Below the pieces are notes generated by a model that was not told the DNA's origin, did not search any database, and saw only the letters and a list, made by a program, of their open reading frames with translations. Position numbers and translations under genes: made by a program. A stretch of DNA of 64,000 bases, from NCBI RefSeq assembly GCF_017357825.1, contig NZ_CP046072.1:1860001-1924000 (forward strand), written 5' to 3'. Source of the DNA: Sulfurimonas aquatica (lineage in GTDB: Bacteria; Campylobacterota; Campylobacteria; Campylobacterales; Sulfurimonadaceae). Within the stretch, counting starts at the first letter, position 1; every line of letters begins with the position of its first letter. This document shows positions 446 to 38,610 of the stretch, one piece after another.

Positions 446-477
446 ATTGTAACAACTACTTGTGACAGCTTGTGTCA
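446..477 (-). promoter_or_regulatory. Operator/promoter 1 of the island regulon
   Basis: Read leftwards, 477-463 is TGACACAAGCTGTCA, a perfect TGACA-N5-TGTCA inverted repeat. It is followed after 11 nt by a TACAAT -10 (451-446). It serves the partial gene at 1-419. The operator sequence is identical to the copy at 12854-12868. No -35 hexamer is evident, and the palindrome covers the place where it would be. Confidence 0.8.
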
Positions 478-487
478 TAAACATAAA

Positions 488-519
488 TGACGCAAGCTGT
501 CATTTTATCTGAGTATACT
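488..519 (+). promoter_or_regulatory. Operator/promoter 2 of the island regulon
   Basis: TGACGCAAGCTGTCA at 488-502 has one mismatch in the left half-site. A TATACT -10 follows at 514-519, again 11 nt away. It drives the small gene at 548. The two operators in this divergent region face opposite ways, and their asymmetric CAAGC core follows the direction of transcription. Confidence 0.8.
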
Positions 520-1230: not shown

Positions 1231-2976
1231 ATGGGACATGGTTGTTGCAATGAGATACTAACGCATAGTGATAGAGTTTATGCTCTCAAAGAAGCGAACG
1301 AACTCGCTATTAGGATTGCTGATGAGATGACACAAGAGAATTATCATATATTTGTAACACGGGACTACTATAACAGAAAAGTGCATTGGAGGATGGCCGA
1401 AGGTGCTAACTTGGATAATAACTGGATAACTTACATAGCCATTAAAAAGAACTATGGTCTTGATGTTTTCATACATAGTAGCGATGAAAAGATTAGAGCT
1501 GCAGTTGGAGCACAAGGTTACCAATCTTCTGTACTTATTAATGATAAAAGTGCCTTAGTTCGTGCTGGAGTGGCACAGTCTGGATATGATCTAAAAAAAC
1601 TTATAAATGATGAAGAACCGGTAGTGCGTTGTGCAGTGGCGAAACAAGGTTACGGTCTTGATATATTGATAAGCGATGAAAACGATAGAGTACGTCGTAC
1701 GGTGGCCGAACAAGGATATAAAACTGAGATTTTAGTAAATGATAAAAGTCCAAGTGTCCGAACTGGTTTGGCAAAATCAGGATACGAGCTCAAAACCCTC
1801 ATGCTAGATGGTGATTCTAATGTTAGTCGTGCAGCAAGAGAGGAGTCTCTTAAAAAGATAGTCCATTGTGAGAACGATGAGGAAGCACTAAAAGCACTTA
1901 CATATATTGTGAATTTACCGCCTATCTCAGATGTTAACATTCCAGGACTTTGGCTAAACAATATGGTTATAGATGAAGATATAGCCATTGACATTATAAA
2001 TAAAGGGTACTGTTTGTCGTACTTTATCAATAGTAATAGCTCAAAAATAAGAGCTACTGTTGCCAAACAAGGGTATTGTTTAGATGTATTGATAAATGAT
2101 AAAGATCCAAAAGTACGTAGCGAGGTCGCTAAGCAAGGGTATGGACTTGATATACTTATTCATGATGAAGATTATTGGGTGCGTGTTGATGTTGTAAAAC
2201 AAGGCTATGGTCTAGACATTTTAGTAAAAGACACATCCTCTCAAGTTCGTGAGTGTATCGCCGATCAAGGTTATGGACTAGACATTCTACTCTACGACAA
2301 AGACTATGATGTTCGTAAAGCAGTCGCACGACAAGGATATGGGCTTGATACATTGGTATACGACGAAAATGAATATGTACGTGATGAAGTAGCTAGACAA
2401 GGATATCGCCTTGATATACTAGTAAAAGATAAAGATAGCTATGTAAAAAAAGCTGTGATTTCTCAAGGATATTGCTTGGAGAATCTTCTTTACGACAAGG
2501 GATATGGTGTTTCCAGTGATGCTTTAGAAGTAATTGCAGAGCAAGCCTCTAATATGAACGAAGTAGTAAAAATAGTTGACTCCGTTATGCAGACCATTCC
2601 TGATTTTATTGAAAAACTTCATGAAACAACTTGCATAAATCTGATGAATATGGGATTTCCCTTGAGCTATTTCATGAAACACAAACATCGATATGTCATT
2701 AATGCACTTGTTGATAGAGGATATGAACTAAAGACCTTTATACACGATGATAATTATCAAACTAAACAGTTTGCAATTCGTAAATTATTAGACAGTTGTA
2801 AAGATGCAGATGAAGTTACAGTAATTGTTAAAGAAGCTTTAAAAGTTGATTCTAATTATATGAATAAAATTGGCCTGGATGATTGCACCAAATTCATAGA
2901 CAAAGGATGTCCTTTGAAGTACTTTTCAAACAGCCGCTATATAACTATTCAAGATCTAATAAGAGCTCAACTGTGA
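1231..2976 (+). CDS. Helical-repeat protein with 22-residue HEAT/LRV-like repeats
   Basis: A 581-residue protein built largely of degenerate repeats of about 22 residues, with the pattern QGYGLDxLxxDxxxxVRxxV. One block covers about residues 60-205 and a second, more regular one about 265-430, with diverged copies beyond. The Val-Arg, Val-Ala, Gly-Tyr and Leu-Asp positions recur as in HEAT or variant leucine-rich repeats, suggesting an alpha-solenoid for binding protein or nucleic acid. The first 60 residues, including an HGCCNE segment, are not repetitive. No signal peptide or catalytic motif is visible. It forms an operon with the gene at 832, and its stop codon overlaps the next operator at 2974. 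The role is unknown; a scaffold or recognition function is inference. Confidence 0.8.
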   Translation: MGHGCCNEILTHSDRVYALKEANELAIRIADEMTQENYHIFVTRDYYNRKVHWRMAEGANLDNNWITYIAIKKNYGLDVFIHSSDEKIRAAVGAQGYQSSVLINDKSALVRAGVAQSGYDLKKLINDEEPVVRCAVAKQGYGLDILISDENDRVRRTVAEQGYKTEILVNDKSPSVRTGLAKSGYELKTLMLDGDSNVSRAAREESLKKIVHCENDEEALKALTYIVNLPPISDVNIPGLWLNNMVIDEDIAIDIINKGYCLSYFINSNSSKIRATVAKQGYCLDVLINDKDPKVRSEVAKQGYGLDILIHDEDYWVRVDVVKQGYGLDILVKDTSSQVRECIADQGYGLDILLYDKDYDVRKAVARQGYGLDTLVYDENEYVRDEVARQGYRLDILVKDKDSYVKKAVISQGYCLENLLYDKGYGVSSDALEVIAEQASNMNEVVKIVDSVMQTIPDFIEKLHETTCINLMNMGFPLSYFMKHKHRYVINALVDRGYELKTFIHDDNYQTKQFAIRKLLDSCKDADEVTVIVKEALKVDSNYMNKIGLDDCTKFIDKGCPLKYFSNSRYITIQDLIRAQL

Positions 2977-3005
2977 CACAACCCGTCACTTTTCTCCATT
3001 ATAAT
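2974..3005 (+). promoter_or_regulatory. Operator/promoter 4 of the island regulon
   Basis: TGACACAACCCGTCA at 2974-2988 has one mismatch in the right half-site and overlaps the stop codon of the preceding gene. A consensus TATAAT -10 lies at 3000-3005, 11 nt away. It is the likely promoter of the 3113-9381 operon with the STAND gene. Confidence 0.8.
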
Positions 3006-3112: not shown

Positions 3113-4291
3113 ATGACATTACAAGAACAGATAATAAACACGCTACTACAATCAAAAAGGGATTTTTATATTCATGAGGCATATATAGGTTATGGTAACT
3201 TTGGACAGACGGGTAAACTTTACCATGTAGATTGCAATAAACAAAAAAATTACAATGGAAACCAACTGCTAGCTGAGCCAAATGAAGATTATAGACCATC
3301 AATGAGCCTTGTTGCTAATGATGACATTTATGGTCATCTGTTTGGGAAAACAAGTTTTTCATCAGAAGAGGAAAAAAATTCTGAAATAAAGCGGATATTG
3401 GAAGCGAGTGGATTTAAAAACCGAATGAATAATAGAGTCAAGATGGAGGAAGAGATAGGAGACTACCTTGATAAACTAGAGAGTAAAAAACAAGCAGAGA
3501 TAATTTTAAAAGCCAATGGAGGATTAGTAGAGATTCCTTTAGAAAAAATATATCATATTGGTATAAGTATAGAAAATGAACTACACACTATATGGCATCA
3601 AAGGGATGACGAAGATCGTTTGTCCATAGAAAGATTTAAACTTACATGTTCTGATGATGATTTCATACAAAGATATAGCCTTGATAATCCAGCTACATTG
3701 GAGGAACATATAAAAAACACTATTGCAGCTGTAGGAAAAGATGTTTTTCTAAATAATATTATCGATGATAATGACTATAGAGTATCTCTTATTGAAAAGT
3801 TTTTAGAAGATGAAGACATATACAGCTTACTACAAAGTATCTATACTCATGTCAACTCTCAATTAGTAAAGGGACTAGAAAGAGACTTATTAGGTGAACA
3901 TAGAACTATTTCTTTTTTAAACCAGTTTAGCGTTCCATACGACAAGATTAAAAATATACATGCTAGAGCTCGAAGTGGCTATCCATGCATAAAGGCTCAA
4001 ACTCGTAAACATCCAAATGGAATAATTAACGTTAATAGTTGGGCTGCTGCAATGATGAACACTGGTTTAAAAGTTCATGTAAATGCTCAAAGTGTATATA
4101 GAAAATCTAAAGAAGAGGTATTGGAAATAGTTAAACCAATGGCCATAGAGCATTTTAATAAACGTAAAATCTTGACGGATGGGATTATCTCTTATAGGTT
4201 CTATGATTTGTTTGAGCACTACTTTGAAATATCACTAGACGAGTTGGGCTTAGAAGTGCTAGCTACGACTAAGGAAAACTCAGATGACTAG
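3113..4291 (+). CDS. Hypothetical protein, first gene of the STAND operon
   Basis: A 392-residue soluble protein with an AAGGA site (3102-3106) seven bases before the ATG, downstream of operator 4. The N-terminal 60 residues are aromatic- and Gly-rich (IGYGNFGQTGKLYHVDCNK). A charged helical stretch follows at about 85-130, and a basic region near 290-340 contains INVNSWAAAMMNTGLKVHVN. I recognise no family. Its 3' end overlaps the 93-residue gene at 4284 by 8 nt. Conservation with the STAND gene would indicate a three-component system; that link is inference from the operon layout. Confidence 0.75.
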   Translation: MTLQEQIINTLLQSKRDFYIHEAYIGYGNFGQTGKLYHVDCNKQKNYNGNQLLAEPNEDYRPSMSLVANDDIYGHLFGKTSFSSEEEKNSEIKRILEASGFKNRMNNRVKMEEEIGDYLDKLESKKQAEIILKANGGLVEIPLEKIYHIGISIENELHTIWHQRDDEDRLSIERFKLTCSDDDFIQRYSLDNPATLEEHIKNTIAAVGKDVFLNNIIDDNDYRVSLIEKFLEDEDIYSLLQSIYTHVNSQLVKGLERDLLGEHRTISFLNQFSVPYDKIKNIHARARSGYPCIKAQTRKHPNGIINVNSWAAAMMNTGLKVHVNAQSVYRKSKEEVLEIVKPMAIEHFNKRKILTDGIISYRFYDLFEHYFEISLDELGLEVLATTKENSDD

Positions 4292-4565
4292 GCTAGGCAA
4301 CATAATGAAAGCGCAACAAGAATTAAAAATGATACTTGAAGATTTGTCTCCAGATAACATAGGTGAGACTACAGCCAATAATCTCAATGAATTGTTTAGT
4401 GTGTTTAACGATGCTTACATTTTAAGAAGTAAAAATGGAAAATATGAACTTAAAGAGATAGAAGAGATATATGAAAAATGTTTTGTAATTCTCAAGAGAG
4501 AGTACAGTCGAAAGTTTATCTCTTGTATGGCTACTACGATGATGTTCCAAGAGAAAGAAGAATAG
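4284..4565 (+). CDS. Small hypothetical protein between 392-aa gene and STAND gene
   Basis: A 93-residue, mostly helical and acidic protein. Its ATG overlaps the end of the previous gene and is preceded by AAGGA; an alternative in-frame ATG at 4302 would remove six residues. The only cysteines lie in the C-terminal half. No domain is recognised. The overlap with the upstream gene suggests translational coupling. The STAND gene follows after about 105 nt, so the product could be an adaptor or an inhibitor of that protein, but this is speculative. Confidence 0.65.
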   Translation: MTRLGNIMKAQQELKMILEDLSPDNIGETTANNLNELFSVFNDAYILRSKNGKYELKEIEEIYEKCFVILKREYSRKFISCMATTMMFQEKEE

Positions 4566-4671
4566 TTTATACTATTTTCGGTAGTATTTCACTACAAGAA
4601 TCAATTATAAAAAACAAATAATAAGAAAATATCAATGAATGAAGTGGCTATAAAGCTTAATGAGGAATCCA

Positions 4672-7600
4672 GTGAACAATACAAAAACATTTAGACTATT
4701 TATATCATCAACTTTCAGTGACTTCCAACTTGAACGTCGAGTCTTACATGAGAAGGTCTTTCCAGAGATAGACAAGCATTGTACGGAACAAGGATATCAG
4801 TTCCAACCCGTTGACCTGCGCTGGGGTGTTAACAATGAAGCACAACTTGATCAAAAAACTCTAGAGTTATGTCTCAACGAAGTTCGTGCTTGTAAGCACT
4901 TCCCTCATCCAAACTTTCTTATAATGCTCGGAAACCGTTATGGATGGGTATCTCTTCCTTATGCTATTAAAAAGAGTGAGTTTGAGAGTATCCTAGACTT
5001 TTATACAAATAACTCTAGTGCTCTTCAACTATTAAATGAATGGTACATCGAAGATAGCAATCATCTCATAGAAGATTTACATGCCTATGTACTAAAGCCG
5101 AGAGAACCTAAAGGAGCATATGCAGACTGGCAAGATTGGGAAAAGCTAGAGAATGAACTTCGTGCACTTCTTCAAGATGCCGCCAATGCACTTTTCAAAG
5201 GAACACCACAATATACCAAATACTTTCTCTCAGCCACAGAAGCAGAAGTCCAAGAGGGGATATTCAAGTATCTTCAACCTACCAAGTTTCAACTAGAAAT
5301 GCAAGAAGAATATACTGAAATCTCTGAAATCGATCAGGACTATGTCTATGGATTTGTCCGTAGCATCAACGATCATGAAACAGCAGACCTTTCAAACGAA
5401 CCTGCAAAGTCATTCATCGACAAAGACCAAACAAATGTCACTAACTTTAAAAAAGAACTTATTGAAAATACCCTAAATAAATCTAACCTTCTTCCAGCAG
5501 ATGTTACCCTCAGTGGGGATATAAATAACCCATTCACAGATAAGAGCTATCTTTTAGAGTTTGAGACCTTTATGATAGATAAGCTCAAGCTTGCAGTAAA
5601 TAAACAGATAGCAGAAGCACAAGAAATCTCACAGCTTACTCAAGAGAGAAGTGAGCAGCAAAGATTTCAGAGTTTAAAGACAAAGGTCTTCTTTGGAAGA
5701 GAAGAAGAATTAGAAGTAATTCAAAAGTATATAGATAGTGACAATACTCAACCTTTCATTGTCCATGGTGTCTCAGGCATAGGTAAGTCATCATTTATGG
5801 CTAAAGTAATTGAGCAGACAGAAGAGGCACTAATATATACAATTGCTGATCGCTTTATTGGTGTTACTTCATCCTCATCAAACACGAGAGCATTACTAGA
5901 GTCTCTAATCAATGACCTTGCGGCACAAAAAGTTCTAGTACTACCAGAGACTTTAAAACAAGATAATAATCAATTCAACCAACAAGTAAAAGAACTTCTA
6001 CTAACAATAGAAAAGCCTACAGTGATAATACTAGATGCTCTAGATCAACTTCAAAACAAAGACTACTTACAGTGGCTACCACTTGAGTTACCCTCAAACC
6101 TAAAGATCATTCTCTCTATGTTAGATCAAAAAGGGTATGAACATTACTATGACCTTTTAAAGAATAAACTTGATAAAAAAAACCAACTAAATATCGAAGC
6201 ACTAAATGATGCTGCTGCAACACAGACACTCAAAAGCTTACTTAAAAAAGAAAAGCATTCACTAACACCACAGCAGTTTGAGTATACACTTGAGAAATTT
6301 AGAGAAAGTAAGAGTTCTCCACTTTACCTCAAGATAGCATTTGAAGAGGTAAAGACATGGAAGAGTACGGATACAAATGAAGAACTTAGAGTTGGTATAC
6401 AAGAGGTTATAAAAGAGTTTATTGACAACCTCACTGAAAAATACCACCATTCCCCAAAAATAGTACATAAACTTTTAGGACTTATATACGCATCCAAAAA
6501 TGGTCTGAGTGAAAAGGAAATACTTGACCTTCTAAGCCGTGATGAATCAATACTTACTGATCTTGAGGAGTTTAATAAACTTGACCTCACTATAGATGGT
6601 GAGACAGTACGACGATTTCCCATCTCAATATGGGCAAGACTGCATGAACAGTTAAAACCTTTTATCAATGAGAGAACAATTGATAATCAAAATCTCATAT
6701 CATTTTTCCACAGACAAATAGATGAAGCAGTACATAACTGTATATATAAAGAGAATTCTCAGCTGTTACATAAAGAACTAGCCGATTACTTCTTGACACT
6801 GCAAGATAAAGATAAACTTTGGGATAAACGCTATTACAATCTTCACATGTTGGAAGAGACTCCATACCAACTCTTTCATGCAAAAGATGGCAAAAGACTA
6901 AAAGAGATTCTGATTGATCTTGAATTTTCTGGAAGTGTTTATAATAACCATAAGGAAGAGACCTTTACAGAGGTACTCGAAAAAGCTGTAGAAATTGATG
7001 GTATTACTGATGATGAGATTGACTCATGGAAAAAGTTTTTTCTTGAAAAAGCACACCTTATTACTGGGGTGGATGGAATTAACTGGAGGGCTAGTCAATC
7101 TTTGTTTCAGTTAGCTTATGAAGATGGAGACAACTCTCCTCTAAGCCATAATGCAGAACAGCTACTTGAGAAAGATAGAGTAGATTTTTTATGGTTAAAA
7201 AAGAGGAATAGACCTAAAAAGTTTAAAAGAACTGGATTGTTAAAGGTTTTAGAGGGGCATTCTGATACTATATTTGGTACAGAAATATTCAAAGATGGAA
7301 GGATACTCTCTTATTCAGTAGATAATACCTTAAGACTATGGGATTCTGAAGGTGAGCCTTTAAGAATTTTAGAAGGGCATACCAGTGCTGTAAAGGGTGC
7401 AAAGATTCTAGAAGACGGAAAGATACTCTCTTATTCACGAAATGAGACTCTGAGACTATGGAGTTCTGAAGGTGAGGCTTTGAGAATTTTAGAAGGGCAT
7501 ACTTATATTGTAAGCGGAGTAGAGATTCTAGAAGATGGAAGAATACTCTCTTATTCTGCTGATAATACTTTAAGACTCTGGAGTTCTGAAGGTGAGGCTT

Positions 7601-9381
7601 TGAGAATTTTAGAGGGGCATACCAGTGCTGTAAAGGGTGCAAAGATTCTAGAAGACGGAAAGATACTCTCTTATTCAGAGGATAATACTTTAAGACTATG
7701 GAGTTCTGAAGGTGAGCCTTTAAGAATTTTAGAGGGGCATACTGATTATGTAAGTGGTGTAAAGATTCTAGAAGACGGAAGAATACTCTCTTATTCTGCT
7801 GATAATACTTTAAGACTCTGGAGTTCTGAAGGTGAGCCTTTGAGAATTTTAGAGGGGCATACTGGTTTTGTAAATGGTGTAGCGGTTCTAGAAGATGGAA
7901 GAATACTTTCTTATTCAGGTGTAGCGGTTCTAGAAGATGGAAGAATACCCTCTTATTCAAAGGATAAAACTTTAAGACTATGGAGTTCTGAAGGTGAGCC
8001 TTTAAGAATTTTAGAAGGGCATACCAGCACTGTAAAGGGTGCAAAGATTCTAGAAGATGGAAGAATACTCTCTTATTCTGCTGATAATACTTTAAGACTA
8101 TGGAGTAATGAGGGAAAAGCTTTAGCTGTTTTAGAGGGGCATACTAGTTATGTAAATGGCATAGAGATTCTAGAAGATGGAAGAATACTCTCTTATTCTG
8201 CTGATAATACCTTAAGACTCTGGAGTTCTGAAGGTGAGCCTTTGAGAATTTTAGAGGGGCATACTGGTTTTGTAAATGGTGTAGCGGTTCTAGAAGATCG
8301 AAGAATACTTTCTTATTCTGCTGATAATACTTTAAGACTCTGGAGTAATGAAGAAAAAGCTTTAGCTGTTTTAGAGGGACATACTGATCATGTAAGTGGT
8401 GCAGAGATCTTAGAAGATGAAAAGATACTTTCTTACTCATGGGATAAAACTTTAAGACTCTGGAGTTCTGAAGGTGAGCCTTTAAGAATTTTAGAAGGGC
8501 ATACTAGTTTTGTAAATGGTGCAAAGGTTCTAGAAGATGGAAGAATACTCTCTTATTCAGAGGATAATACTTTAAGACTATGGAGTTCTGAAGGTGAGCC
8601 TTTAAGAATTTTAGAAGGGCATACCAGTGCTGTAAAGGGTGCAAAGATTCTAGAAGACGGAAAGATACTCTCTTATTCAAAGGATAAAACTTTAAGACTA
8701 TGGAGTAATGAAGGAAAAGCTTTAGCTATTTTAGAGGGGCATACTAGTTATATAAGTGGTGCAAAGATTCTAGAAGATGGAAGAATACTCTCTTATTCTG
8801 TTGATAAGACTTTAAGACTATGGAGTTCTGAAGGTGAGCCTTTGAGAATTTTAGAGGGACATACTGATAATGTAAGTGGTGCAAAGATTCTAGAAGATGG
8901 AAGGATACTCTCTTACTCATGGGATGATACTTTAAGACTATGGAGTTCTGAAGGTGAGCCTTTAAGAATTTTAGAAGGGCATACCCGTGCTGTAATTGGT
9001 GCAAAAATTCTAGTTGACGGAAGAATACTCTCTTACTCAAGTGATGTGACTTTAAGACTATGGAGTAATCAAGGAAAAGCTTTAGCTGTTTTAGAGGGGC
9101 ATACTGGTTTTATAGATGGTGCAAAGATTCTAGAAAATGGAAGGATACTCTCTTGTTCATATGATAAGACTCTAAGACTCTGGAGCAATGAAGGTGAAAA
9201 ACTGTGTCTATGGAATATTGCAGTTGAAAGTATATCCTTTAATAAGGTTACTGAAAAATCATTTCTAGCCCTCTCAGATAAATATTTACTTATCTATGAT
9301 TTTTATGATGGTAATGAAGCAATATCTATAAATGTACTTGCCAAAGAACTTGAAAACTCTTTATATGAAGATGGGATATAG
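4672..9381 (+). CDS. NLR-like STAND protein: DUF4062, NACHT NTPase, WD40 repeats
   Basis: A protein of 1569 residues. I prefer the GTG at 4672 over the ATG at 4660: AGGA (4663-4666) sits five bases before it, and the product then starts directly in the DUF4062 signature (RLFISSTFSDFQLER). DUF4062 covers about residues 5-115. A STAND/NACHT-type NTPase follows, with Walker A GVSGIGKSS near 366-374 and Walker B VIILDALDQ near 450-458. A helical region runs to about 855. Sixteen 40-residue WD40 repeats follow to about 1510, then one degenerate repeat. The same architecture occurs in animal NWD1-like proteins, and bacterial STAND NTPases (Avs and bNACHT proteins) are known phage sensors. Here the WD40 domain would sense and the N-terminus would signal or act. 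A defence role is inferred from family and context. Confidence 0.9.
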   Translation: MNNTKTFRLFISSTFSDFQLERRVLHEKVFPEIDKHCTEQGYQFQPVDLRWGVNNEAQLDQKTLELCLNEVRACKHFPHPNFLIMLGNRYGWVSLPYAIKKSEFESILDFYTNNSSALQLLNEWYIEDSNHLIEDLHAYVLKPREPKGAYADWQDWEKLENELRALLQDAANALFKGTPQYTKYFLSATEAEVQEGIFKYLQPTKFQLEMQEEYTEISEIDQDYVYGFVRSINDHETADLSNEPAKSFIDKDQTNVTNFKKELIENTLNKSNLLPADVTLSGDINNPFTDKSYLLEFETFMIDKLKLAVNKQIAEAQEISQLTQERSEQQRFQSLKTKVFFGREEELEVIQKYIDSDNTQPFIVHGVSGIGKSSFMAKVIEQTEEALIYTIADRFIGVTSSSSNTRALLESLINDLAAQKVLVLPETLKQDNNQFNQQVKELLLTIEKPTVIILDALDQLQNKDYLQWLPLELPSNLKIILSMLDQKGYEHYYDLLKNKLDKKNQLNIEALNDAAATQTLKSLLKKEKHSLTPQQFEYTLEKFRESKSSPLYLKIAFEEVKTWKSTDTNEELRVGIQEVIKEFIDNLTEKYHHSPKIVHKLLGLIYASKNGLSEKEILDLLSRDESILTDLEEFNKLDLTIDGETVRRFPISIWARLHEQLKPFINERTIDNQNLISFFHRQIDEAVHNCIYKENSQLLHKELADYFLTLQDKDKLWDKRYYNLHMLEETPYQLFHAKDGKRLKEILIDLEFSGSVYNNHKEETFTEVLEKAVEIDGITDDEIDSWKKFFLEKAHLITGVDGINWRASQSLFQLAYEDGDNSPLSHNAEQLLEKDRVDFLWLKKRNRPKKFKRTGLLKVLEGHSDTIFGTEIFKDGRILSYSVDNTLRLWDSEGEPLRILEGHTSAVKGAKILEDGKILSYSRNETLRLWSSEGEALRILEGHTYIVSGVEILEDGRILSYSADNTLRLWSSEGEALRILEGHTSAVKGAKILEDGKILSYSEDNTLRLWSSEGEPLRILEGHTDYVSGVKILEDGRILSYSADNTLRLWSSEGEPLRILEGHTGFVNGVAVLEDGRILSYSGVAVLEDGRIPSYSKDKTLRLWSSEGEPLRILEGHTSTVKGAKILEDGRILSYSADNTLRLWSNEGKALAVLEGHTSYVNGIEILEDGRILSYSADNTLRLWSSEGEPLRILEGHTGFVNGVAVLEDRRILSYSADNTLRLWSNEEKALAVLEGHTDHVSGAEILEDEKILSYSWDKTLRLWSSEGEPLRILEGHTSFVNGAKVLEDGRILSYSEDNTLRLWSSEGEPLRILEGHTSAVKGAKILEDGKILSYSKDKTLRLWSNEGKALAILEGHTSYISGAKILEDGRILSYSVDKTLRLWSSEGEPLRILEGHTDNVSGAKILEDGRILSYSWDDTLRLWSSEGEPLRILEGHTRAVIGAKILVDGRILSYSSDVTLRLWSNQGKALAVLEGHTGFIDGAKILENGRILSCSYDKTLRLWSNEGEKLCLWNIAVESISFNKVTEKSFLALSDKYLLIYDFYDGNEAISINVLAKELENSLYEDGI
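7240..9201 (+). repeat. Array of sixteen 120-bp near-identical WD40-coding repeats
   Basis: Sixteen tandem in-frame units of 120 bp encode 40-residue WD40 repeats with the invariant cores LEGHT, GRILSYS and TLRLWS. Unit 6 is 162 bp long because of a 42-bp internal duplication (7876-7917 and 7918-7959). Variation between units clusters at unit positions 9-10, 12, 14-15 and 27-29, while the framework stays almost fixed. Such internal identity implies recent expansion or ongoing homogenisation by recombination. Confidence 0.9.
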
Positions 9382-10342: not shown

Positions 10343-11653
10343 GGTAGTGTTCAATAATCTGTGTCAGTATCGAGTAATTCCTAAAATTGTATCATAAATT
10401 AAGAGCTTTATCTAATCTCCCCTCAAAGTGAATTGAGAGTTGAGAGATAGTTAAGCTCCAGTTTCTAACTGGCATAGTCCATTTTTTTGAGGCATTCTGG
10501 ATGCCCATATAGAGTAATTTTAATAAGCTATTATCATTAGGGAAAGCACCTTTAGTCTTAGTCAGTGTTCTGAACTGTCGATGCACAGACTCAATGATAT
10601 TGGTGGTATAGATTACTTTTCTAATATCAGCTGGATATTTAAAATATACAGACAGATTATCCCATTTATTTCTCCAAGAAGTAAAAACGATTGGATATTT
10701 TTTACCCCATTTTTCTTCAAGCTTATCGAGTTCAATTTCAGCTTCTTCTTTCGTAAAGGCTTGATAGACTTTCTTCAACTCTTTTGCGAACTGCTTTTGA
10801 TTAGCGGAACCTACATATTTAAGTGAATTTCGGATTTGATGAACAATACAGAGTTGTACTTCTGTGTCAGGATAGACTGAGTTTATGGCTTCAGGAAAGC
10901 CTTTTAAACCATCAACGGAAGCGATGAGTATATCTTTAACACCACGATGAGATAAATCAGTAAGTACCTGTAGCCAGAACTTAGCACCTTCACTCTCATT
11001 GAGATAGAGACCAAGTATCTCTTTCTTCCCATCAATGCCGACACCGAGAACGGTATAAAATGCTTTTGAGATATATCTTCCATCCTCTTTTACTTTATAG
11101 TGAATCGCATCTAAAAATATAAAAGGATATACTTCTTCAAGAGGACGAACTTTCCACTCTTGAAGCATAGGTATTATTTTATCTGTTACTGTACTGATTG
11201 CACCCTTAGAAAAGCCTACACCGTAAATATCTTCGATAAGCTTTGCTATTTGAGAGTAGCTGTTACCATGAGAGTAAAGAGCAAGTATTTTATCTTCTAT
11301 CTCACCTGACATAGTTCGTTGATTTTTCTTTACAATCTCAGGCTCAAAACTACCACTACGGTCTCTTGGAACATCAAGTTCAAATTCACCATGTTCACTT
11401 TTCATAGTTTTAGTGGCATAGCCATTTTTACGGTTCTTTGAGATATCTTGTGTTAAATGGGAATCTATTTCTGCGGAGAGAGCAGCTTCTGTAAGTTGCT
11501 TTATTAAAGAGCTTAATGCTCCATCTTTACCACTGATACTCTTACCAGCCTTTATATCACGAGCAAATTGCTCTGCATCTATTTCTATCTTCATCTGTGT
11601 GTCCTTGAGTAATTGTTATTTTACCCGATTGACACAGATTTTTAAACGGTCCC
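10343..11653 (-). mobile_element. IS256-family insertion sequence, copy 1
   Basis: A 1311-bp element with imperfect terminal inverted repeats (GGGACCGTTT... at the right end and GGTAGTGTTC... at the left end, both running into TCTGTGTCA). The 8-bp target duplication GTATAGTC lies at 10335-10342 and 11654-11661. It carries one transposase gene read leftwards. It inserted 18 bp upstream of operator 5. The duplication differs from that of copy 2, so this is an independent insertion. Confidence 0.95.
10392..11594 (-). CDS. IS256-family (mutator-type) transposase, copy 1
   Basis: A 400-residue transposase that catalyses cut-and-paste or copy-out transposition with a DDE catalytic triad. Family signs are FLDAIHYKVKEDG (first Asp), LIASVDGLKGFPEAI (second Asp), VQLCIVHQIRNSL, and the C-terminal TTNIIESVHRQFRTLTK segment with the catalytic Glu. 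The length is typical of intact IS256 transposases. The sequence is identical to the copy at 15620, so both elements are probably functional or very recently so. Confidence 0.95.
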   Translation of the reverse strand: MKIEIDAEQFARDIKAGKSISGKDGALSSLIKQLTEAALSAEIDSHLTQDISKNRKNGYATKTMKSEHGEFELDVPRDRSGSFEPEIVKKNQRTMSGEIEDKILALYSHGNSYSQIAKLIEDIYGVGFSKGAISTVTDKIIPMLQEWKVRPLEEVYPFIFLDAIHYKVKEDGRYISKAFYTVLGVGIDGKKEILGLYLNESEGAKFWLQVLTDLSHRGVKDILIASVDGLKGFPEAINSVYPDTEVQLCIVHQIRNSLKYVGSANQKQFAKELKKVYQAFTKEEAEIELDKLEEKWGKKYPIVFTSWRNKWDNLSVYFKYPADIRKVIYTTNIIESVHRQFRTLTKTKGAFPNDNSLLKLLYMGIQNASKKWTMPVRNWSLTISQLSIHFEGRLDKALNL

Positions 11654-12915: not shown

Positions 12916-14544
12916 ATGGCTAACATGGGTTTTATACAAACAAGAGAACCAGAGACTTGTTTAGAAGATCTAATAATGGTTCCAGAAACATTTACTCACT
13001 CTATCGCGTTTGGACAAACAGGTTGTGGAAAAACATCTAGCTTTATCTACCCAAATCTTAAAAATAGACTTGAGCTTGGACATGGGATTTTAGTTTATGA
13101 CTACAAAGGAAAAGAGCACTTTAGTGTTAAAGTTTTAGCAGAGTCTCTTGGTAGACTTGATGATGTAGTTGAGATAGGAAAACCATGGGGTAAAAGTATA
13201 AATATAATTCAAAATATGGATGAGGACGAACTAGACAAATTCTTTTCAAATATATTAAGTCATGGTAAGGATGGTAAGTACTGGGAAAACAGTGCTAAAT
13301 CACTTGGACAAAGTGTACTAAAGGTTTTAAAGTCTGTAGAGGACTTTTGTATAGAGTACGAATCAATTGAAACTGATGAAAAAGAAAGATCTGCACTGAA
13401 GTCAAAAATATCGGTTCCAACAAAAAAAACTATTGCTTCTTTAGTAGAAATTTGTTCTACTTTTGAAAATCTATGTGACTTTATAAATAAACTCGAAAAA
13501 ACTCAGCGACATATGGAAAACCTGATAGAGGAGAGCTTACAAAAGAATTTAAAAGAGACCCAAGATATTAAGTTGTTAAAACAAAAATACACAAGACTAA
13601 TACGAGAAAAAGAGAAGTTTAAAACTGTACTAGAGGATACTCAAGTTTCCTTAGATAGCTTTGGTAAGGACTCAAATGAAAATCTCACTCAAAATATCAT
13701 GGGTTCGTTAATCTCTCCATTAGTGAGTCTTTCACAAAATATTATGTTTAATACTAATTCATTCGACATTGCATCAGCTTTAAACCAAGGTAAGATCATC
13801 GTTGTAAATGTAGAGTCTATGTCTGATGTTGTAGTGGAAAGTTTAAACAACACCATACTTTATGAACTAAGCAAACGCACAAATAAGATGAACCTGCATC
13901 CCATCTCTATATTTATAGACGAGATTCAAAGAGTAGTAAGTAAAAACTCTGACTTGCCTATAGATGTTTTTAGAGAGGCAAAAGTCGACTTAATACTTGC
14001 TACTCAAAACTCTGCTCTACTTAAAGATAAACTTGAAGATGAAAAGTTTGAAGCTCTAATGGGAAATCTAACCCAAAAATATTACTTTAAAAGTTCTAGT
14101 GATGAAGAGATAAACTCTATAAACGAATTAAGAGTCCTAGAAGGTTTCGAGTATCTTTGCTCAAGTGATGACTATTCTAAAGTTCAGTGCTCTACTCCAA
14201 TATTTATAACAGAATCTGAAAAACTGAAAATAGAGTATAAATATCAAAAAGAACTTAAAGTACTATTTCATTTTTTATATGTGCAACAAGATAAACCTTA
14301 TGTACTAAATTATGACGCGAGACTTTTTAAAAGTAAGAAAGTGATTGCAATAAACATCAAAACATTCAAAGAAAGTATAGAGGATTCAATGTCCCACTAT
14401 GATTATTCAGATCTCTCTTGTGAAGTCGATTTTTTATTTAAGAAAACAATGAAACTTATGGATAAATATCCTTCTGTTGAGATTGATAAGAGCAGTTTAC
14501 TTTTAGACTCTATGGATTTTGAAGAGGAACTTCGCATAGTATAA
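12916..14544 (+). CDS. VirD4/TraG-like P-loop ATPase without membrane segment
   Basis: A 542-residue ATPase. Walker A FGQTGCGKTSS lies at about residues 32-42, followed by ILVYDYKGKEHF as in coupling proteins. Walker B ISIFIDEIQRVV lies at about 330-341, and LILATQNSALLKDKL beyond it matches the sensor region of TraG/VirD4 proteins. A charged helical insertion of roughly 60 residues lies near 195-255. Unlike conjugative coupling proteins it has no N-terminal membrane helices, and no relaxase or type IV secretion genes are nearby. A role as a DNA translocase or pump in a defence or mobile-element system is more likely than conjugation; this is inference. The WYL regulator follows after 61 nt. 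Confidence 0.85.
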   Translation: MANMGFIQTREPETCLEDLIMVPETFTHSIAFGQTGCGKTSSFIYPNLKNRLELGHGILVYDYKGKEHFSVKVLAESLGRLDDVVEIGKPWGKSINIIQNMDEDELDKFFSNILSHGKDGKYWENSAKSLGQSVLKVLKSVEDFCIEYESIETDEKERSALKSKISVPTKKTIASLVEICSTFENLCDFINKLEKTQRHMENLIEESLQKNLKETQDIKLLKQKYTRLIREKEKFKTVLEDTQVSLDSFGKDSNENLTQNIMGSLISPLVSLSQNIMFNTNSFDIASALNQGKIIVVNVESMSDVVVESLNNTILYELSKRTNKMNLHPISIFIDEIQRVVSKNSDLPIDVFREAKVDLILATQNSALLKDKLEDEKFEALMGNLTQKYYFKSSSDEEINSINELRVLEGFEYLCSSDDYSKVQCSTPIFITESEKLKIEYKYQKELKVLFHFLYVQQDKPYVLNYDARLFKSKKVIAINIKTFKESIEDSMSHYDYSDLSCEVDFLFKKTMKLMDKYPSVEIDKSSLLLDSMDFEEELRIV

Positions 14545-37724: not shown

Positions 37725-37800
<76 letters not shown>

Positions 37801-37812
37801 ATGTTTTTTTAA

Positions 37813-37889
37813 TGGTGCTGACACGAGGATTCGAACCCCGGGCCTGTTGATTACAAATCAACTGCTCTAGCCAACTGAGCTATGTCAGC
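37813..37889 (-). tRNA. tRNA-Thr (UGU)
   Basis: Read leftwards, a 77-nt cloverleaf with encoded CCA. The acceptor is GCTGACA and the anticodon loop TTTGTAA (anticodon UGU). It is separated from the next upstream tRNA by about 135 nt with no gene. That gap contains a loose inverted repeat around GCTTAAAAAT and ATTTTTAAGTGC. Confidence 0.95.
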
Positions 37890-38024
37890 AAAAATGACTC
37901 ATTTAATTGTAACTTTGAATATATTTATAGATATCTTATTTTTGAATTTGTTGTGCTTAAAAATAAGGCGAAGCATAGTGCACTATATGAGTCTAATTTT
38001 TAAGTGCAAATAATTAAAAAGAAG

Positions 38025-38101
38025 TGGCGCGGTGGACGAGACTCGAACTCGCGACCCCCTGCGTGACAGGCAGGTATTCTAACCAACTGAACTACCACCG
38101 C
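38025..38101 (-). tRNA. tRNA-Asp (GUC), copy 1
   Basis: Read leftwards, a 77-nt cloverleaf with encoded CCA. The acceptor is GCGGTGG and the anticodon loop CTGTCAC (anticodon GUC). It is identical in sequence to the copy at 38434-38510. Confidence 0.95.
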
Positions 38102-38126
38102 GCATATAATAAAAAGTACTTTAAAA

Positions 38127-38202
38127 TGGTGGGCATTACTGGACTCGAACCAGTGACATCTACCTTGTAAGGGTAGCGCTCTACCAACTGAGCTAAACGC
38201 CC
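38127..38202 (-). tRNA. tRNA-Val (UAC), copy 1
   Basis: Read leftwards, a 76-nt cloverleaf with encoded CCA. The acceptor is GGGCGTT and the anticodon loop CTTACAA (anticodon UAC). It is identical to the copy at 38339-38414. Confidence 0.95.
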
Positions 38203-38228
38203 ATTTTAAAATCTGTAACACCAAATTT

Positions 38229-38304
38229 TGGCGACCCCTAAAGGATTTGAACCTCTGTTCCTACCATGAAGTGATAGTGTCCTTGGCCACTAGACGAAAG
38301 GGTC
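38229..38304 (-). tRNA. tRNA-Glu (UUC)
   Basis: Read leftwards, a 76-nt cloverleaf with encoded CCA. The acceptor GACCCTT pairs with AGGGGTC, and the anticodon loop ACTTCAT gives UUC. It lies between the two Val copies. Confidence 0.95.
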
Positions 38305-38338
38305 ACTGTACTTTCACAAACGAAAGGTTTGTTAACAA

Positions 38339-38414
38339 TGGTGGGCATTACTGGACTCGAACCAGTGACATCTACCTTGTAAGGGTAGCGCTCTACCAAC
38401 TGAGCTAAACGCCC
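38339..38414 (-). tRNA. tRNA-Val (UAC), copy 2
   Basis: Read leftwards, a 76-nt cloverleaf identical to copy 1 at 38127-38202, including the encoded CCA. The duplication suggests gene amplification or unequal recombination within the cluster. Confidence 0.95.
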
Positions 38415-38433
38415 AAAGATAAACTAAAACATA

Positions 38434-38510
38434 TGGCGCGGTGGACGAGACTCGAACTCGCGACCCCCTGCGTGACAGGCAGGTATTCTAACCAACTGAA
38501 CTACCACCGC
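38434..38510 (-). tRNA. tRNA-Asp (GUC), copy 2
   Basis: Read leftwards, a 77-nt cloverleaf identical to copy 1 at 38025-38101, including the encoded CCA. Confidence 0.95.
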
Positions 38511-38534
38511 ATATATAGTGTTTTAATTTAAAAA

Positions 38535-38610
38535 TGGTGTCCTGTGATGGATTCGAACCATCGGCCACATCATTAAAAGTGACGTGCTCTACCAGCTGAG
38601 CTAACAAGAC
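38535..38610 (-). tRNA. tRNA-Lys (UUU)
   Basis: Read leftwards, a 76-nt cloverleaf with encoded CCA. The acceptor GTCTTGT pairs with ACAGGAC, and the anticodon loop CTTTTAA gives UUU. It is the first tRNA of the cluster in the direction of transcription. Confidence 0.95.

What the first reader, a model, noticed from the sequence alone, without database searches (positions are those of the whole stretch)
4672..9381. Bacterial NLR-like STAND protein with near-identical WD40 repeats
DUF4062, NACHT-type NTPase and WD40 are joined in one chain as in animal NWD1-like proteins. Sixteen 40-residue repeats are almost identical in framework, while residues at repeat positions 9-10, 12, 14-15 and 27-29 vary. 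In fungal HET-type NLRs, highly conserved WD40 repeats with a few hypervariable surface positions are the hallmark of fast-evolving recognition. The same pattern here suggests a sensor that changes specificity by repeat shuffling. Its operon and operator tie it to the island regulon.
Basis: partly seen in the sequence, partly recalled or inferred. Interest (0 to 1): 0.88.

Follow-up and report, generated by a model that had tools for sequence, protein, structure and literature searches.

The report
Bacterial NLR-like receptor with diversifying WD40 array
A Sulfurimonas gene encodes an animal-NLR-like immune receptor whose 16 WD40 repeats recombine and are under selection to differ at the same few surface positions as fungal self/non-self receptors, so this kind of fast-evolving recognition probably exists in bacteria too.

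Summary
The ORF (probable GTG start 4672, end 9381) encodes DUF4062, a NACHT-type STAND NTPase, an NWD1-like winged helix and sixteen 40-aa WD40 units. Unit 6 carries a recent in-frame 42-bp duplication.

The three most variable of the 40 unit positions are exactly the three known top-face WD40 interaction hotspots (1 of 9,880 possible triples). At the four positions under strong positive selection in Podospora het-d/het-e repeats, omega here is about 3.6, against about 0.4 for the rest of the unit. The repeats have also recombined.

Relatives keep the effector and NTPase but swap the sensor (TPR, ankyrin or propeller) at about residue 760.

The most likely function is an abortive-infection receptor with a TIR-like DUF4062 NADase effector. 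The closest prior art is Swarozyc and TEP1, cyanobacterial STAND-WRAP proteins, Avs, and the general report of variable hotspots in highly repetitive prokaryotic WD40 proteins: a new variant of a known kind.

Not shown: NADase activity, phage defence, the ligand, and repeat-number variation between strains (no close orthologue with a repetitive array was found). Two WD40 arrays in unrelated Sulfurimonas proteins show a similar pattern, so it is not unique to NLRs.

The parts
2974..2988 (.). Operator-like palindrome TGACACAACCCGTCA with a TATAAT box shortly downstream, upstream of the 3113-9381 gene set
   Evidence: 13 sites in 121 kb, 0.7 expected; 14 exact sites in the genome, 10 of them in a 59-kb island; sequence
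3113..4291 (+). Companion gene 1, 392 aa, no known family, no relative in the other genomes of the genus searched or in plasmids
4284..4565 (+). Companion gene 2, 93 aa, overlaps gene 1, no known family
4672..9381 (+). STAND/NLR-like receptor gene (GTG start 4672 preferred over ATG 4660)
   Evidence: relatives' N-termini
4690..5280 (+). DUF4062 TIR-like effector domain; motif S191-A-T-E-A-E196, E196 the presumed catalytic Glu (residues numbered from ATG 4660)
   Evidence: equivalence to TEP1 E1008 partly inferred
5662..6390 (+). NACHT-type STAND NTPase with Walker A GVSGIGKSS (around residues 370-378) and Walker B ILDALD
   Evidence: AF2 model with structural matches Avs3, MalT, plant NLRs, Apaf-1
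6457..6735 (+). NWD1-like winged helix (HTH_NWD1)
   Evidence: 29.2 bits, cut-off 27
7249..9210 (+). Array of 16 WD40 units (40 aa each, unit 6 of 54 aa), predicted as 16 four-stranded blades
7876..7959 (+). 42-bp in-frame tandem duplication inside unit 6 (40/42 identical), modelled as a disordered loop

Best explanation
The protein works as a bacterial NLR. In the resting state the C-terminal beta-propellers and winged helix hold the NACHT-type NTPase in an ADP-bound, monomeric form. A protein from an invader, most likely a phage structural or packaging protein, docks on the propeller top faces, whose contact residues differ from blade to blade. Docking triggers nucleotide exchange and oligomerisation and brings the N-terminal DUF4062 domains together. 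These act as TIR-like NADases, deplete NAD+ and stop the infected cell. Blades are homogenised and reshuffled by recombination within the array, while selection keeps the top-face positions diverse, so new specificities can be built quickly. Shown by computation: the architecture, the repeat count, the positional pattern, omega above 1, the recombination and the sensor swaps among relatives. Inferred: the ligand class, oligomerisation, NADase activity, abortive infection, and ongoing change of specificity.
For: Domains pass curated cut-offs. The NTPase model aligns best with Avs3 (Z 15.1, 3.5 A over 230 residues), then MalT, a STAND-TPR protein, plant NLRs and Apaf-1. DUF4062 matches the solved TEP1 NADase domain at E 7e-21, and E196 of SATEAE is invariant in the family. 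DUF4062 proteins are NADases that give antiphage defence in E. coli (PMC13174449). The three most variable unit positions are the three known top-face hotspots (PMC3419727). On the inferred tree the four sites with the strongest signal (24, 7, 26, 9) are the equivalents of the four Podospora codons 7, 9, 25, 27 (PMC1805685). Omega at these four is 3.6, 2dlnL 55.6. All 16 units have different four-residue combinations. Recombination: PHI 0 of 2000 permutations, and half-to-half correlation 0.12 vs 0.68 +/- 0.08 simulated without recombination. Sensor domains are swapped at about residue 760 in three pairs of relatives. Distribution is patchy: 8 of 135 genomes of the genus and 12 of 399 of the order. 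It lies in a co-regulated island with TIR proteins, further DUF4062 receptors, a kinase and IetA/mad-like ATPases.
Against: No activity, ligand or phage data. PADLOC finds no known system. No close orthologue with a repetitive array, so turnover in a population is unmeasured. Relatives that align through the linker have non-repetitive propellers. The hotspot pattern also occurs in WD40 proteins of other architecture, so it may be a general feature of young propellers. Codon models assume one tree, which recombination violates; tree-free counts (pN 0.53, pS 0.31 at the four positions) give a more modest ratio. No structure confirms how 16 blades close; the propeller model is a single-sequence prediction (pLDDT 73, pTM 0.51).
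Confidence: 0.62

Rival explanations
1. A young amplified propeller without arms-race evolution: one WD40 blade was amplified, and the exposed top-face positions drift freely because the fold does not need them, while recombination keeps the rest alike. The protein may still be a STAND receptor with a fixed ligand.
For: Highly repetitive WD40 proteins are common in bacteria and show diverse hotspots in general (PMC5587647); new propellers are continuously amplified from single blades (PMC9218822); unrelated arrays L035 and L036 show the same pattern.
Against: Free drift predicts omega near 1, but it is about 3.6-4.7 at the hotspots under inferred and star trees and higher under shuffled trees. 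Exposed bottom-face loops are constrained (pN 0.15, pS 0.33).
Confidence: 0.22
2. A STAND switch for an internal signal (stress, envelope damage, cell-cell or kin recognition) or a regulator of a mobile island, not an antiviral receptor; the varied blades bind several endogenous partners.
For: It lies in a co-regulated island next to VirD4/TraG-like coupling proteins and a transposase. In fungi the same repeat design serves allorecognition (PMC1805685). Some STAND proteins, such as MalT, are metabolic regulators (own knowledge).
Against: The DUF4062 effector is an executioner NADase in its tested relatives (PMC13174449). Neighbours are defence-like. The distribution is patchy.
Confidence: 0.13
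3. An inactive or decaying gene: the 14-aa duplication in unit 6 or an odd blade arrangement breaks the propeller.
For: The duplication inserts 14 residues inside blade 6; disrupted repetitive propellers are known (PMC9218822).
Against: The frame is intact over the whole gene, framework omega is 0.12-0.4, all Walker and DUF4062 motifs are kept, and the insert is modelled as a loop.
Confidence: 0.03

Closest known systems
NWD1 / NWD2 / TEP1 (animal DUF4062-NACHT-WD40 STAND proteins)
   Same: Same domain order, DUF4062 - NACHT - winged helix - WD40; HTH_NWD1 model passes its cut-off; closest solved DUF4062 is TEP1
   Different: Bacterial; the WD40 units are highly repetitive with selected hotspots; NADase activity is untested here
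Swarozyc (KpSwz, bacterial DUF4062 antiphage NADase)
   Same: DUF4062 effector family, defence-island setting
   Different: The solved KpSwz chain is 326 aa with a winged portal-binding domain and no STAND NTPase or WD40; only weak partial sequence match
Podospora HNWD family (HET-D, HET-E, HET-R)
   Same: NACHT plus repetitive WD40; same positively selected positions; recombination between repeats
   Different: HET effector instead of DUF4062; higher repeat identity (over 80-85%); population polymorphism is shown there and untested here
STAND-WRAP proteins of cyanobacteria (Npun_R6612, PDB 2ymu)
   Same: Bacterial STAND NTPase with highly repetitive WD40; best Foldseek match of the array; immune role proposed earlier (cited in PMC9218822)
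   Different: No DUF4062; blades there lack synonymous changes (very recent amplification); coupled TIR-STAND gene in the operon, whereas here a TIR-STAND-WD40 gene lies about 51 kb away
Avs / bNACHT antiphage STAND proteins
   Same: STAND NTPase between an effector and a C-terminal sensor; Avs3 is the best structural match of the NTPase
   Different: Avs sensors are large TPR-like arms that bind terminase or portal (own knowledge); no PADLOC Avs match here
Highly repetitive prokaryotic WD40 proteins (Hu et al. 2017)
   Same: Internal identity at least 0.7 with diverse hotspot sites
   Different: That survey's text does not mention NACHT or NLR, so this STAND architecture was not treated there

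Membership tests
NWD1/TEP1-type DUF4062-NACHT-WD40 protein | DUF4062 domain | tested here: met
   Pfam 40.3 bits, cut-off 24.7; TEP1 domain match E 7e-21
NWD1/TEP1-type DUF4062-NACHT-WD40 protein | NACHT NTPase followed by NWD1-like winged helix | tested here: met
   NACHT 29.2/26.7 and HTH_NWD1 29.2/27 bits
NWD1/TEP1-type DUF4062-NACHT-WD40 protein | C-terminal WD40 propellers | tested here: met
   WD40 341.8 bits; 16 units
NWD1/TEP1-type DUF4062-NACHT-WD40 protein | Catalytic Glu of the TIR-like NADase | tested here: inconclusive
   E196 invariant in all alignments; equivalence to TEP1 E1008 rests on the spacing of R908/R954/R976 in chain 11gz plus TEP1 residues recalled from memory, not on an alignment through the motif
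NWD1/TEP1-type DUF4062-NACHT-WD40 protein | NAD(P)+ hydrolysis | not testable with these tools
   Needs an enzyme assay; in the cited work only TEP1, not NWD1, NWD2 or NPHP3, was active
Swarozyc | Short DUF4062 protein with a winged portal-binding auxiliary domain and no STAND NTPase | tested here: not met
   1,569-aa protein with NACHT and WD40; profiles match KpSwz only over about 20 residues
Podospora HNWD (HIC-WD40 NLR) | Diversifying selection at unit positions 7, 9, 25, 27 (fungal numbering) | tested here: met
   Equivalent positions 7, 9, 24, 26: omega 3.6, 2dlnL 55.6; same four strongest on the inferred tree
Podospora HNWD (HIC-WD40 NLR) | Repeat identity above about 85% | tested here: not met
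   Mean 75%, maximum 90%, framework 83%
Podospora HNWD (HIC-WD40 NLR) | Exchange of repeats by recombination | tested here: met
   PHI 0/2000; half-to-half correlation 0.12 vs 0.68 simulated
Podospora HNWD (HIC-WD40 NLR) | Repeat-number polymorphism between alleles | not tested
   No second allele or close orthologue with an array in the collections searched
Highly repetitive (HR) WD40 proteins | Internal identity at least 0.7 | tested here: met
   0.749
Avs | Match to a known Avs/defence model | tested here: inconclusive
   No convincing PADLOC match; NTPase fold match to Avs3 Z 15.1 over 230 residues
DGR-diversified sensor | Reverse transcriptase in the genome | tested here: not met
   No RVT_1 match in the whole genome

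The most novel reading that the evidence does not exclude
Bacteria have a germline-diversifying NLR family. A constant DUF4062-NADase/NACHT core is coupled to exchangeable repeat sensors (WD40, TPR, ankyrin), and within the sensors recombination plus positive selection at a handful of surface positions generates new specificities, convergent with fungal het genes.
Probability: 0.45. Interest if true: 0.82.

Novelty: new variant of a known kind. Interest (0 to 1): 0.64.

Why it matters
The same four surface positions stand out in a bacterium and in a fungal incompatibility system. If strain data confirm turnover, repeat-array diversification becomes a general solution for intracellular non-self recognition, and one that can be studied in E. 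coli. It also gives bacterial homologues of the TEP1/NWD1 architecture for asking how a propeller switches on a DUF4062 NADase, an open question in the vault field.

Tried and rejected
DGR-driven hypervariation: rejected, no reverse transcriptase in the genome. Virus-borne gene: no match in phage records and one distant DUF4062 relative in viral contigs; the WD40 array had none. Known defence system: no convincing PADLOC hit for this protein. Close orthologous arrays: looked for in the genus, the order, GTDB contigs and Polynucleobacter. Only degenerate propellers (L027, L106-L109) and distant Burkholderiales DUF4062-WD40 proteins (L060, L063, L066; 41-aa units, roughly half identical, more repeats) were found; in the latter synonymous sites are saturated. 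Companion genes gave no family. A model-based alignment of units for L035/L036/L060 failed to cover units and was redone with H and W anchors. TPR arrays of relatives (L030, L059) also concentrate change at a few positions, but those positions were picked by variability, so this is only suggestive. Inactivation by the 42-bp duplication was considered and judged unlikely.

Full report
WHAT IS THERE. The ORF at 4660-9381 is open for 1,573 codons. The start is more likely GTG 4672, because GAGGA sits just upstream of it and relatives begin MTNNKTFRLF or MNNKKTFRLF. The window lies at 1.86 Mb of a 2.85-Mb genome. Pfam places DUF4062, NACHT/nSTAND1, an NWD1-type winged helix and WD40 in that order, each above its cut-off. 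The array has 16 units of 40 residues from residue 864. Unit 6 carries a 42-bp in-frame duplication identical at 40 of 42 bases.

POSITIONAL PATTERN. Over the 16 units, entropy is highest at positions 24, 7 and 9, followed by 6 and 26. Positions 7, 9 and 24 are R1-2, R1 and D-1, the three residues of each blade that carry protein contacts on the top face of solved WD40 complexes (PMC3419727). Only 1 of the 9,880 possible triples scores as high. In Podospora het-d/het-e relatives, codons 7, 9, 25 and 27 are under strong positive selection, in pairs around the conserved codons 8 and 26 (PMC1805685). In this 40-aa unit the equivalents are 7, 9, 24 and 26, around the conserved 8 and 25. The mapping rests on the His and Trp anchors and on the shorter unit here; it is an inference, not a published alignment.

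SELECTION. Tree-free counts at the four positions give pN 0.53 and pS 0.31; all other positions give pN 0.11 and pS 0.30. Bottom-face loops, also exposed, give pN 0.15 and pS 0.33. A codon model gives omega 4.7 for positions 7/9/24 on the inferred tree, 4.5 on a star tree and higher on shuffled trees, with framework 0.11-0.18. For the four fungal positions tested as a preset class, omega is 3.6 and 2dlnL against omega 1 is 55.6, with 0.38 for all other positions. On the inferred tree the four sites with the largest likelihood gain are 24, 7, 26 and 9. On the star tree the order changes (24, 7, 6, 39, 9, 33, 26), so the ranking of the lesser sites is not robust. All 16 units differ in their four-residue combination.

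SHUFFLING. Compatibility of neighbouring sites exceeds all 2,000 permutations. The distances between units measured on the two halves of the unit correlate at 0.12, while simulation without recombination gives 0.68 +/- 0.08. Unit halves have therefore been reassorted. The 42-bp duplication shows a recent length change inside the array. Mean unit identity is 75% and framework synonymous divergence about 0.33, so this is an older homogenised array, not a burst of identical copies.

RELATIVES AND SENSOR SWAPS. Within the genus only 8 of 135 genomes have a close DUF4062-NTPase relative, and in the order 12 of 399. The closest (G003, 62%) matches to about residue 760 and then differs completely. 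The same break appears between two Polynucleobacter proteins and between two proteins of one Burkholderiales genome. The C-termini are TPR (own genome L011; L025, L030, L059), ankyrin (own genome L010) or propeller. Those that align through the linker into the propeller (L027, L106-L109) have degenerate, non-repetitive propellers. Burkholderiales relatives (L060, L063, L066) have longer WD40 arrays of LSWS type with lower internal identity. The window array is therefore probably a lineage-specific re-amplification, and no close orthologous array exists in the collections to test turnover.

GENERALITY. Two highly repetitive WD40 arrays of unrelated architecture in the same genus (L036 and L035) show raised omega at the same four positions (4.3 with 2dlnL 39.5, and 2.2 with 6.0). 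Hu et al. (PMC5587647) noted diverse hotspot sites in highly repetitive WD40 proteins in general. The pattern is thus a property of a class, and the receptor reading rests on the architecture as well.

STRUCTURE. An AlphaFold model of residues 1-747 (13-sequence alignment, pLDDT 79, pTM 0.71) matches Avs3 (Z 15.1, 3.5 A over 230 residues), MalT, a STAND-TPR protein, plant NLRs and Apaf-1. The array model (single sequence, pLDDT 73, pTM 0.51) shows 16 four-stranded blades, with the duplicated 14 residues as a low-confidence loop between strands b and c. Its first Foldseek match is 2ymu, the repetitive Nostoc propeller, with Apaf-1 among the next. How the blades partition into rings is unresolved.

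EFFECTOR. DUF4062 was recently reported to be a TIR-like NADase: bacterial Swarozyc proteins protect E. coli from phage through NAD+ depletion, and TEP1 is an active NADase, while NWD1, NWD2 and NPHP3 showed no activity (PMC13174449, a preprint). The family here matches the TEP1 domain at 7e-21. The motif S-A-T-E-x-E is conserved; E196 is invariant in every alignment, whereas E194 is not. The TEP1 arginines R908, R954 and R976 have the spacing of chain positions 15, 61 and 83, which puts E1008 at position 115. From memory of the TEP1 sequence this is the second Glu of SVTEME, the equivalent of E196; this last step was not confirmed by an alignment.

SETTING. The gene follows two small genes of unknown family. 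A palindrome of TGACA/TGTCA type occurs 13 times in 121 kb around the locus (0.7 expected), including just upstream of 3113. The island holds a TIR-NTPase-WD40 protein, other TIR proteins, three other DUF4062 receptors, a kinase, and M41-type AAA and IetA/mad-like ATPases.

VERDICT. This is a new variant of a known kind: the NWD1/TEP1-like architecture, a STAND-WRAP-like repetitive sensor and the HNWD-like selected positions had each been described, but this combination was not found in the papers searched.

Noticed in passing
window 1231-2976 (+): 581-aa protein made of about 25-aa similar HEAT-like repeats (QGYGLDILI..D....VR), in a gene set preceded by the same operator; another repetitive protein in the regulon.
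   Followed up: no
window 463-502, 773-787, 2974-2988, 11672, 12792, 12854, 17320: Island-wide palindromic operator TGACACAAGCTGTCA, often next to TATAAT-like boxes; the regulator was not identified.
   Followed up: partly
G000:C1:1811304-1813664 (L009 8304-10664): TIR - NPHP3_N-type NTPase - WD40 protein whose blades are the closest found to the window's (53%); a second receptor sharing the same kind of blade with a different effector.
   Followed up: partly
L011 5640-13131, L025-L026, L030 4649-15735: Recurrent module: small protein of unknown family, AAA/M41 or IetA-like ATPase, DUF4062-TPR receptor(s), with a TIR protein in two of the three loci; looks like a multi-gene system in Campylobacterota.
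   Followed up: no
L059 (Arcobacter cryaerophilus) from 1877: DUF4062-NTPase with about nine similar 46-aa TPR units; change is concentrated at a few helix-A positions with almost no synonymous change there.
   Followed up: partly
window 10392-11594 (-): Transposase-like ORF (looks IS256-like, not confirmed with a family search) directly downstream of the receptor region.
   Followed up: no
window 12916-14544 (+) and L011 13345-15084 (-): VirD4/TraG-like or mad8-like ATPases, two related copies in the island.
   Followed up: no
window 37728-38610 (-): Cluster of eight tRNA genes.
   Followed up: no
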